Positions 13,066 to 15,889 of a stretch of DNA of 64,000 bases are shown one piece after another. The DNA lies in assembly GCA_029260575.1 (NCBI GenBank), contig JAJDDB010000016.1, positions 248,001-312,000 of the forward strand, given 5' to 3'. The notes under the pieces were generated by a model. That model did not search any database. It was given only the letters and a program-made list of their open reading frames with translations, and was not told the origin of the DNA. Made by a program: the position numbers and the translations under genes. Every line of letters starts with the position of its first letter. The stretch's first letter is position 1. This stretch comes from Phycisphaerales bacterium. GTDB lineage: Bacteria; Planctomycetota; Phycisphaerae; Phycisphaerales; SM1A02.

Positions 13066-13632
13066 TCATGGCTCGTCAATTTCTTCAACAAGTGGGAACC
13101 ACTTCCAGTCGTGTTCGACAAAGATCAGGTCTTCATCGTCATCAAATTCGGCATGATATTGATGCACGTGCGGCGACGGGTACTCAAACGGCTGCGAAAT
13201 GAACTGATTGTGCCGCAGCGTTTGCTCGAACCGGTCCAACGGTCCGTAAGCAAAGATGACATTGTGATTGTCGTAAATGATCTGGCTTTCATCGCCGATA
13301 CCGAATATCCAGATGTGATGTCGGCCATCCTGCTCGAAATAAGTGCGAAACTCATCGAGAAACGACAGCACTGGTGCTTTGTCCATCGGTTGGCTGGATT
13401 GGTAGCGCCCCGGTTTGTGGTCACCACGTGGCACGACAAGAATGTACAAGAGGCCGAAGGGGCCGCGCATGTCCTCCACTAGGTTCATGAACAATTCAAT
13501 GTGATTTGATTCCGGTCCAATCACAAGTCGCTCTGGACCCGTGGTTTGCTCTCGAAACCAACAATTCAGATATGAGAATGGATCAACCAGATCCATATCG
13601 CCTGGAACTCCAAATTTGATCAGCGCTGCCAT
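13066..13632 (-). CDS. Unknown protein coupled to the DNA methyltransferase
   Basis: 188 residues, acidic and soluble, with no signal peptide or membrane segment and no recognised domain. ATG 13632 lies two bases after the stop of the methyltransferase gene, so it is almost certainly translated with it. Notable stretches are IELFMNLVEDMRGPFGLLYI and a C-terminal acidic patch (AEFDDDEDLIFVEHD). No PD-(D/E)xK, HNH or GIY-YIG nuclease signature is visible, so calling it a restriction enzyme is not justified. It could be an accessory or immunity-like partner of the methyltransferase, or unrelated cargo. Confidence 0.75.
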   Translation of the reverse strand: MAALIKFGVPGDMDLVDPFSYLNCWFREQTTGPERLVIGPESNHIELFMNLVEDMRGPFGLLYILVVPRGDHKPGRYQSSQPMDKAPVLSFLDEFRTYFEQDGRHHIWIFGIGDESQIIYDNHNVIFAYGPLDRFEQTLRHNQFISQPFEYPSPHVHQYHAEFDDDEDLIFVEHDWKWFPLVEEIDEP

Positions 13633-13634
13633 GC

Positions 13635-14672
13635 TTATGCATCCTGGTCTGTGGCAAGTGCGGTTCGTTTAGTTCGCCGTGGTTCGAAGATCGCCGACGA
13701 TTGCGGGCCAGTACTGTCGCGCTGGATCATGCCGACTTTTGTGATGCGCTCCCAGGCGCTCTTGGCATTCACTGCTGAATATTCGATACCGATCGATCGA
13801 CGTTTCAATGCGCGGGCGACTGTGCAGGTTGTACCGCTGCCGAGGAACGGGTCGAGCACAAGATCGCCCTCGTTTGAACATGCTTTGATCACCCGCTCCA
13901 GATACACCTCGGGAATCTGGTTGTGGTGCTGATGCCGCCGCTCTTTGTTATTGCCCTGAATGCGCCCCCAGTATTTGCCGTACCACACATCCATCGGCAC
14001 GCGCATGCCTTTGTTGGTGTCCTTGGCCATCGTGCGCGGGTCAGAATATATTGCTGCGCGATCGCTCAATTCCAGAATGTCATCGCCGTTCCAGATGCGC
14101 GTTGCCGAGTTCTTACAGAAGTACAGCGCATGCACTTTGCTCATAATGAATGAACTGCTGCGGTTCTGGCCGAAACGGAAGTGCCACACGCACCAGTTGA
14201 TCATCGTCAACCCGCGACGCTTGAGATGCACAACGATTTCCGCTGCGGTGTCGTCAGGAATATTCACCCACAAACTTCCATGCGGCGCGAGTGCGTCAAT
14301 GCAGCCGTCCAGCCAGTCGAATGTGAATCGTTCGTATTCGCGGCGGGCCATGCCGTCATCCCAATTCTCGTATGGCACGTCCCAGTTGAACGGCGGATCT
14401 GCAAAGATGAGATCAACGTCACCTTTGCTCGGCAGGTGCGCGAGAACATCACGACAGTCGCCAATGATGACCTGCGTGTGCGGATTTTTCGTTTCGTGTT
14501 TCGGTTTCAGCGAGCGTGGTTTCTTTGGCGTGTGCGCATCAACTGCATCGCCGAACAACCGAATGTCCGCATCCAGGTACGACTTTGCATCGCGTGCCTG
14601 CAGCGCCGTTGCCCCGGTCGGCATCGCATACCCGCCGGGTCGATTAAATTCCGTATTCTTACGTTCAGCCAT
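13635..14672 (-). CDS. Site-specific DNA methyltransferase (beta-class, DPPF motif)
   Basis: 345 residues. Catalytic motif IV (DVDLIFADPPFNWDVPYENW) comes before the AdoMet-binding motif (LVLDPFLGSGTTCTVA), the order of beta-class amino-methyltransferases that make N6-methyladenine or N4-methylcytosine. The central target-recognition part includes VWYGKYWGRIQGNNKERRHQ. No restriction endonuclease is recognisable beside it, so it may be an orphan or regulatory methylase. The coupled gene at 13066 is unknown. The region just upstream carries four copies of a GCGCAAT half-site, suggesting a dedicated regulator or autoregulation. Confidence 0.9.
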   Translation of the reverse strand: MAERKNTEFNRPGGYAMPTGATALQARDAKSYLDADIRLFGDAVDAHTPKKPRSLKPKHETKNPHTQVIIGDCRDVLAHLPSKGDVDLIFADPPFNWDVPYENWDDGMARREYERFTFDWLDGCIDALAPHGSLWVNIPDDTAAEIVVHLKRRGLTMINWCVWHFRFGQNRSSSFIMSKVHALYFCKNSATRIWNGDDILELSDRAAIYSDPRTMAKDTNKGMRVPMDVWYGKYWGRIQGNNKERRHQHHNQIPEVYLERVIKACSNEGDLVLDPFLGSGTTCTVARALKRRSIGIEYSAVNAKSAWERITKVGMIQRDSTGPQSSAIFEPRRTKRTALATDQDA

Positions 14673-14673
14673 G

Positions 14674-14751
14674 GCGCAATATCCTCAACCTTAGTGCGTG
14701 AGACATCGTAGCGCATAGACGCAATTGCGCCAGCGCAATTCCTGATTGCGC
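14674..14751. promoter_or_regulatory. GCGCAAT half-site array upstream of the methyltransferase
   Basis: Four copies of the 7-mer GCGCAAT (either orientation) lie between upp and the methyltransferase start: 14674-14680, 14724-14730 (as ATTGCGC, inside the palindrome CGCAATTGCG at 14720-14729), 14733-14739 and 14745-14751. The last two form a perfect 7-bp inverted repeat around TCCTG. No T-run follows, so a terminator for upp is less likely than operator sites. Confidence 0.55.
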
Positions 14752-14777
14752 GCAAGCTGTCCATAGTGCAAATATGT

Positions 14778-15425
14778 TTATTGTGTCCCGAAAATGCGAT
14801 CGCCCGCATCGCCGAGGCCGGGCATGATGTAGCCCTTATCGTTGAGTTGGCGATCCAACGCTGCGGTGTAGACCATCACATCCGGGTGTTCTTGAAGCAT
14901 CTTCCGCACACCCTCCGGAGCACACACCAGACAGATCATCCGCACATCATCACAGCCGCGCTCGCGCAGGACATTCACCGCATGTGATGCGGACCCGCCG
15001 GTCGCCAGCATCGGGTCAATCAGCAGCACCGGCCCCGCAGCAACATCCGGCGGGAACTTGGCGTAGTACGCAACCGGCTTGAGCGTTACTTCATCGCGAT
15101 ACACACCTATGTGACCAACGCGTGCTTCGGGCACCAATGCCAGTATCCCATCGGTCATGCCGATGCCCGCGCGAAGAATCGGCACCAGCGTCACCGGCTT
15201 GCTCAGGACGCGCGATGTCGTCATCTCAAGCGGCGTCTCGACTTCAATTTCCGCAGTCGGGAATTCTCGACTGATCTGAAACGTCATAAGCCCGGCAATC
15301 TCATTGAGCCGGCGCCGAAACGTTTCGGTATTCGTGCGATTGTCACGCAACTGCGTCAGCTTCTGCTGAATCAGCGGATGCACAAACACATGCAGGTTCG
15401 GAAAATCCGGATGCTTCTGCGGCAT
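14778..15425 (-). CDS. upp: Uracil phosphoribosyltransferase
   Basis: Pyrimidine salvage enzyme converting uracil and PRPP to UMP. The 215-residue protein starts at ATG 15425 (MPQKHPDFPNLHVF). The open frame extends 113 codons further upstream, but that part is low-complexity and lacks homology features. Visible motifs are PILRAGIGMTDGIL, the PRPP loop LLIDPMLATGGSA and the uracil-binding C-terminal GYIMPGLGDAGDRIFGT. Length and motif order are typical. Transcribed towards the methyltransferase on the same strand, with a 105-base gap holding operator-like repeats. Confidence 0.95.
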   Translation of the reverse strand: MPQKHPDFPNLHVFVHPLIQQKLTQLRDNRTNTETFRRRLNEIAGLMTFQISREFPTAEIEVETPLEMTTSRVLSKPVTLVPILRAGIGMTDGILALVPEARVGHIGVYRDEVTLKPVAYYAKFPPDVAAGPVLLIDPMLATGGSASHAVNVLRERGCDDVRMICLVCAPEGVRKMLQEHPDVMVYTAALDRQLNDKGYIMPGLGDAGDRIFGTQ

Positions 15426-15889
15426 ACGGTGCAGTGTAGCGGGAAACGGGCACATGCCGCGAGTTGAGCGCGAGAGGCGGGACGGCAAGCCATGATCACA
15501 ACAATACATTGTGATTTCTGCGTACTGAGTGATGAGATGTGCATCAGAACTGCGCGCGCTGCAGGCGATGAAAAAAGTCAGCGCTGCGGCGCGCGCGCGA
15601 CCTTCGGCAGGCGCTTTTTCCGGGGGGTCACCCCCGCTGGCGCGGTGCAATCGACGCGTGCAACAGTGCGGCGCGCGCCACACGCAACATTTTGCGCTCT
15701 TGCTATGCGAATCCGGGACAATCCGAACACTTCTGCTGTGGAAACGTTCTGCGCAAAACCACAATCGAGAGCAATATGCTGTTGATCTGAGACAATCTTT
15801 GCTACCGTTTTGGACGTTGCGCGCGCCAGTCGCTGGGTTTTGCGCAGAAGTGCGTAATAACGCAACGGCGCGCGCCAGATCGTGTCTAA
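15426..15889. other. Non-coding region upstream of upp
   Basis: No gene with family features is seen. The DNA contains repeated GCGCGC tracts (near 15586, 15668, 15817 and 15869) and a short perfect hairpin GGGGG-TCA-CCCCC near 15630. It probably includes the upp promoter and marks the boundary of the accessory patch that follows. Confidence 0.45.

What the first reader, a model, noticed from the sequence alone, without database searches (positions are those of the whole stretch)
14674..14751. Array of four GCGCAAT half-sites before a DNA methyltransferase operon
Between upp and the methyltransferase there are four copies of one 7-mer in about 80 bases, including a 10-bp palindrome and a perfect 7-bp inverted repeat with a 5-base spacer; one copy sits just before the start codon. 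Such clustering looks like cooperative operator sites. Methyltransferase genes are often controlled by small regulators or by their own methylation, but no regulator gene is adjacent.
Basis: partly seen in the sequence, partly recalled or inferred. Interest (0 to 1): 0.6.

Follow-up and report, generated by a model that had tools for sequence, protein, structure and literature searches.

The report
Conserved promoter of a methyltransferase gene
Four repeated short DNA words really do sit in front of a DNA-methylating gene in this planctomycete; the exact array is private to this genome, but it lies on a promoter element shared by many distant relatives of the same gene and few other genes, which hints that the gene has its own dedicated control.

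Summary
The four GCGCAAT copies (14674-14751) are real. The 7-mer and its pairs are ordinary genome-wide, but this is the only irregular (non-tandem) cluster of its kind in the 346-kb contig. The array is absent from 33 of 33 other upp-methyltransferase pairs, so a conserved GCGCAAT operator is not supported; no congener was available. Outside the finding, orthologous methyltransferase upstreams share a related element: TKGCGC-N16/17-[TG]AYNNT, a -35/-10-like promoter, in 26 of 131 upstreams (18 sequence clusters). An .AYNNT box follows TKGCGC at exactly 17 bp 23 times, against 0 in 193 other gene upstreams from the same loci. A fresh hold-out gave 3 of 15 (0.46 expected). In 14 relatives' genomes the strict pattern occurs 14 times; six are this gene. 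Here the element is TGGCGC (14727-14732) and TACGAT (14705-14710); array core 14720-14755 overlaps and flanks the -35. Best reading: a near gene-specific promoter of an order-wide, probably solitary adenine methyltransferase, with its GCGC core locally multiplied as operator-like sites, perhaps for autoregulation. The binding factor and any methylation feedback are inferred, not shown.

The parts
14674..14680 (-). GCGCAAT copy 1 (reads ATTGCGC on the gene's strand), ends 1 bp before the ATG
14705..14710 (-). -10-like hexamer TACGAT, preceded by GCGC; 32 bp to the ATG
   Evidence: GCTAYNNT is in 19 of 131 ortholog upstreams against 1.57 expected
14711..14726 (-). 16-bp spacer, ends ATGCGC against the -10
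14727..14732 (-). -35-like hexamer TGGCGC (the conserved TKGCGC element)
14720..14755 (.). array core: palindrome CGCAATTGCG, copies 2-4 of GCGCAAT and palindrome TTGCGCGCAA, overlapping and flanking the -35 element
14724..14730 (-). GCGCAAT copy 2 (reads GCGCAAT on the gene's strand), overlaps the -35 hexamer by 4 bp
14733..14739 (+). GCGCAAT copy 3 (reads ATTGCGC on the gene's strand), abuts the -35 hexamer
14745..14751 (-). GCGCAAT copy 4 (reads GCGCAAT on the gene's strand)
14714..14764 (-). possible RNA hairpin, -18.3 kcal/mol; 20 of 200 shuffles fold as well
13635..14672 (-). DNA methyltransferase gene, 345 aa, PF01555 N6_N4_Mtase; order-wide ortholog family
14778..15425 (-). upp, uracil phosphoribosyltransferase, upstream neighbour; 105-bp gap to the methyltransferase
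13066..13632 (-). 188-aa ORF just downstream, no family match; not found near the methyltransferase in 29 relatives' loci

Best explanation
The region is the methyltransferase gene's own promoter. Its conserved parts are TGGCGC (-35 position, 14727-14732) and GCGC+TACGAT (-10 position, 14705-14710), the local version of TKGCGC-N16/17-[TG]AYNNT, which many orthologs of this gene carry and other genes rarely do. The GCGCAAT array is a lineage-specific multiplication of the same GCGC core over and next to the -35, and most likely serves as a cluster of protein-binding sites that tunes transcription by competing with RNA polymerase at the -35. Shown by comparison: the cluster, the conserved element, its fixed spacing and its near gene-specificity. 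Inferred: that it is a working promoter, that a protein binds the repeats, that the effect is repression, and that the binder may be the methyltransferase itself.
For: Discovery set, 82 usable upstreams without G000: GCGCAA/TTGCGC 21 against 6.1 in same-locus random windows (0 of 2000), GCGCTA sense 12 against 0.8; control intergenic DNA is not enriched (18 against 15.6; GCGCTA 1 against 4.9). First hold-out, 48 usable: GCGCTA sense 7 against 0.98 (0 of 2000), TTGCGCTA 3 against 0.27 (2 of 2000), GCGCAA 11 against 5.7 (62 of 2000). Full pattern in 26 of 131 upstreams, which form 18 sequence clusters; the spacer histogram with .AYNNT peaks at exactly 17 (23 hits) against 0 in 193 control upstreams. 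Second hold-out, fetched after the pattern was set: 3 of 15 against 0.46, 15 of 2000. Anchoring on the -10 alone, the commonest hexamers at spacer 17 are TGGCGC (14) and TTGCGC (6) of 76. In 14 genomes the strict 17-bp pattern occurs 14 times: 6 before this gene, 2 before an IS630-like transposase (my reading), 6 elsewhere with an open ORF of 152 aa or more over the site; 5 of the genomes have it only at this gene. In contig C16, TKGCGC at spacer 16-18 occurs once in 211 gene upstreams, at the spacer (16) of this promoter.
Against: 105 of 131 upstreams lack the pattern. G000's spacer is 16, not 17, so the strict pattern would not match G000 itself. The sigma-70 consensus scan found nothing here. 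GCGCAAT as such is not enriched in relatives and the array has no counterpart in 33 other upp pairs; only L007 and L121 among 89 other distinct orthologs have three TTGCGC-type copies in 150 bp. The element was noticed post hoc and the second hold-out is small. Starts of divergent orthologs were projected from the alignment and may be wrong. The 14 genomes were picked because nearly all showed some form of the element. No transcription-start or binding data exist.
Confidence: 0.5

Rival explanations
1. A neutral quasi-palindrome: template-switching during replication turned imperfect repeats around the GCGC-rich promoter into near-perfect ones; the copies have no binding function.
For: Array private to G000 among those compared; 7-mer and its pairs near background genome-wide; a paper reports intergenic tandem-repeat variation in Planctomycetota (PMC9426551, passages read); the contig has other repeat arrays.
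Against: Clusters with mixed orientation are absent from 20 Markov simulations; position directly over a conserved -35-like element.
Confidence: 0.3
2. An RNA element: a hairpin between upp and the methyltransferase that ends or attenuates upp transcription or protects the upstream mRNA.
For: The 19-nt repeat folds to -7.8 kcal/mol (0 of 200 shuffles as good) and the 51-nt segment to -18.3 (20 of 200); the genes are codirectional.
Against: No T-run terminator found; the whole intergenic fold is no better than shuffles (z 0.13); no Rfam match; some other upp pairs have gaps of only 0-7 bp.
Confidence: 0.15
3. A dedicated transcription factor encoded elsewhere, conserved in the order, recognises TKGCGC/GCGCTA at this promoter; the array gives it more sites.
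For: Fixed position and near gene-specificity of the element; the repeats have the inverted symmetry typical of dimeric regulators.
Against: No candidate regulator identified; neither neighbouring gene matched a family that suggests one. A factor serving one gene without being linked to it is less usual.
Confidence: 0.3

Closest known systems
CcrM of Caulobacter crescentus and its GANTC-containing promoter
   Same: Related adenine methyltransferase; CcrM structure 6pbd matches at E 9e-22. ccrM has GANTC methylation sites in its promoter and is transcribed from hemimethylated DNA (PMC2217572, passages read).
   Different: Far below the CcrM equivalog cut-off (110.9 against 830 bits); no GANTC in 14673-14777; target sequence unknown.
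Restriction-modification systems whose methyltransferase represses its own promoter (Ecl18kI type)
   Same: Operator-like repeats over the methyltransferase promoter; such enzymes bind an operator that overlaps the promoter (PMC3874152, passages read).
   Different: Those use an N-terminal helix-turn-helix; Pfam finds only PF01555 here; neither neighbour matched a nuclease family.
C-protein controlled restriction-modification systems (C-boxes)
   Same: Clustered inverted sites at a methyltransferase promoter.
   Different: No C gene recognised next to it.
Taxon-wide solitary methyltransferases such as CamA of Clostridioides difficile
   Same: A solitary adenine methyltransferase common to a whole taxon (PMC8187626, abstract start in the search listing only).
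   Different: Different lineage and, as far as known, a different target; no phenotype known here.

Membership tests
CcrM (NF050803) | score above the curated cut-off of 830 bits | tested here: not met
   110.9 bits, aligned 65-332
CcrM (NF050803) | GANTC sites in its own promoter | tested here: not met
   no GANTC in 14673-14777
CcrM (NF050803) | methylates GANTC | not testable with these tools
   needs methylation data
YhdJ-type adenine methyltransferase (NF008572) | score above 292 bits | tested here: not met
   117.3 bits
N6_N4_Mtase superfamily (PF01555) | score above 26.7 bits with DPPF and FLGSGTT motifs | tested here: met
   144.4 bits over 86-300; motifs seen in the translation
C-protein regulated R-M system | small HTH regulator gene and nuclease next to the methyltransferase | tested here: not met
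   neighbours are upp and a 188-aa ORF without matches
Self-repressing methyltransferase (Ecl18kI type) | N-terminal helix-turn-helix domain | tested here: inconclusive
   only PF01555 found; the N-terminal stretch matched no Pfam family, no structure predicted
sigma-70 promoter | two hexamers at 16-18 bp close to TTGACA/TATAAT | tested here: inconclusive
   consensus scan negative; spacing and -10 type agree and are conserved

The most novel reading that the evidence does not exclude
An order-wide solitary adenine methyltransferase of Phycisphaerales recognises a sequence containing GCGC[CA]A (the complement of TKGCGC) and shuts down its own gene by methylating or binding that site in the -35 of its promoter, a feedback loop independent of CcrM/GANTC; G000 has strengthened the loop by multiplying the site.
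Probability: 0.17. Interest if true: 0.7.

Novelty: new variant of a known kind. Interest (0 to 1): 0.45.

Why it matters
Solitary DNA methyltransferases kept across a whole order usually act in gene control or the cell cycle, and none of the papers I saw listed or read describes one for this group of planctomycetes. A promoter element kept through large sequence divergence and nearly unique to this gene gives a concrete handle: a defined DNA site, a predicted feedback and a candidate methylation target that long-read sequencing could settle.

Tried and rejected
GCGCAAT as a genome-wide regulon motif: rejected; it is at background in C16 and its pairs are near chance. Of the other pair loci, each one whose sites were located has an open ORF of 133 aa or more over it (one locus, L037, gave no answer).

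A repeated or mobile element: the 141-bp region has no second copy in the genome (next best match 24 bp).

Relaxed palindromes (up to 2 mismatches) gave 47 and 72 places, too many to interpret; their contexts were not examined.

Rfam and consensus promoter/terminator scans were negative. The literature search for the bare 7-mer gave 1,214 papers, 15 listed and none opened, and a ccrM-promoter search gave 0 papers. PMC6329791 was searched for planctomycete terms and has none; PMC9516812 was searched in the same way without a relevant passage. The structure tools were not used: a fold would not reveal the target sequence.

Dropped rows: ortholog loci that duplicated an upstream region (110 loci gave 90 distinct; 46 of 100 dropped; 5 of 20), and upstreams with under 20 noncoding bases (7 of 90; 6 of 54). 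The 131 pooled upstreams include G000.

Full report
What was checked. The 7-mer is ordinary in this genome: 36 in the window against 33.3 in shuffles, 149 in contig C16 against 145 expected, 1461 in 4.11 Mb. Its clustering here is not ordinary: no 7-mer reaches four copies in 78 bp in 100 window shuffles, and 20 Markov contigs average 0.05 such clusters. In the real contig five places do: three tandem arrays, one run of repeats that looks coding, and this one, the only irregular one. After allowing for all 7-mers in a whole genome the cluster is noteworthy, not extreme: by my arithmetic from the counts, four GCGCAAT in 78 bp somewhere in the genome has a chance of about 0.004, before counting other 7-mers.

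The gene. The product is an N6_N4 methyltransferase (PF01555); the nearest solved structures are MboIIA and CcrM, and it is below the CcrM and YhdJ cut-offs. Orthologs are widespread: 235 of 400 genomes of the order at E up to 1e-60. upp lies upstream within 120 bp in 34 of 90 distinct orthologs including G000. Of the 33 others none has the array and one (L097) has a single GCGCAAT. No congener was available. The 188-aa downstream ORF was not found near the gene in the 29 other loci of the first set, so it is probably not part of the system.

What is conserved instead. Reading the upstream regions showed recurring TTGCGC and GCGCTA. In 82 usable upstreams other than G000, GCGCAA/TTGCGC occurs 21 times against 6.1 in random windows of the same loci and GCGCTA (sense) 12 times against 0.8; the exact 7-mer does not clearly differ from chance (3 against 1.04). 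Control intergenic DNA of the same loci is not enriched. This was post hoc, so 100 new stretches were fetched; 46 duplicated the first set or each other and 6 had too little noncoding DNA, leaving 48. They confirmed GCGCTA (7 against 0.98) and TTGCGCTA (3 against 0.27), more weakly TTGCGC (11 against 5.7), and not GCGCAAT (1 against 0.74).

The geometry. In the pooled 131 upstreams TKGCGC is followed at exactly 17 bp by a -10-like hexamer: 14 times with TAYNNT and 23 times with .AYNNT, against 0 and 0 in 193 control gene upstreams of the same loci. The pattern with spacer 16-18 is in 26 of 131 (the script's rule also allowed C as first -10 base, but each of the 26 has a T or G form), falling into 18 clusters of dissimilar upstreams. 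Since TKGCGC is fixed by that rule, I also anchored on the -10 alone: the commonest hexamers 17 bp upstream are TGGCGC (14) and TTGCGC (6) of 76. A second hold-out fetched afterwards (20 stretches, 5 duplicates) gave 3 of 15 against 0.46 (15 of 2000). In a subset the -10 ends 6-9 bp before the start codon, which suggests leaderless transcripts.

Specificity. In C16, TKGCGC at spacer 16-18 before TAYNNT appears once in 211 gene upstreams, at spacer 16, which is that of this promoter. In G000 the related pattern GCGC-N14/15-GCTAYNNT has 18 matches; five are preceded by TK, and the only one of these that lies outside a long ORF and before a gene of 90 aa or more is this promoter. In 14 relatives' genomes, picked because nearly all showed some form of the element, the strict 17-bp pattern has 14 matches: six directly before this gene's orthologs (G003, G224, G198, G282, G279, G054, the last five having no other match), two before an IS630-like transposase (my reading of the protein start), and six elsewhere with an open ORF of 152 aa or more over the site (the same is true on one strand or other of some ortholog promoters, so this is weak evidence that they are coding). 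Four of the 14 genomes have no match, and G012, G222, G039 and G043 have matches only elsewhere, because their own promoter deviates from the strict pattern.

Back to the window. G000 carries TGGCGC (14727-14732), a 16-bp spacer ending in GCGC, TACGAT (14705-14710) and 32 bp to the ATG. The array core 14720-14755 overlaps the -35 and extends just upstream of it. Copy 2 shares four bases with the -35; copy 3 abuts it. Copy 1, next to the ATG, is 43 bp away from the rest and may be unrelated.

Reading. The promoter is well supported by comparison. That the repeats are operators is an inference from position, symmetry and the shared GCGC core. The near gene-specific element fits autoregulation, which is known for other methyltransferases (PMC3874152 and PMC2217572, passages read), but nothing here shows the enzyme's target or any binding. 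An RNA hairpin is possible and weakly supported; a neutral repeat remains a serious alternative because the array is private to this genome among those compared.

Noticed in passing
L015, L078, L079, L082, L083, L085 (upp-methyltransferase gaps of 91-98 bp): A related clade keeps GTGGCGCGA and GATCATCG unchanged at fixed distance in an otherwise diverged intergenic region: a second, clade-specific form of the same promoter.
   Followed up: partly
L013, L014, L015, L078, L086, L129, L138, L140, L280: The -10-like hexamer ends 6-9 bp before the start codon, suggesting leaderless transcripts for this gene.
   Followed up: no
L007 upstream of the start: TTGCGC/GCGCAA appears three times (two sense copies 17 bp apart) before the ortholog in genome G003, the nearest thing to an array outside G000.
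   Followed up: partly
contig C16 173202-173347 (L059 13202-13347): A 20-bp tandem repeat of TTGCGGAGAGCGCCCGCGAC type.
   Followed up: no
contig C16 161152-161511 (L059 1152-1511): An 18-bp repeat rich in Lys/Arg codons, like a histone-H1-type basic tail (my reading).
   Followed up: no
contig C16 72883-72954 (L054 12883-12954) and 2458-2511 (L051): Short tandem arrays with 21-bp and 16-bp periods, the latter with an inverted last copy.
   Followed up: no
window 15545-15885: Stretch rich in CGCGCGC runs and TTGCG words upstream of upp.
   Followed up: no
L338 and L339: The strict promoter pattern also lies 37-38 bp before an IS630-like transposase start (my reading) in two genomes.
   Followed up: no
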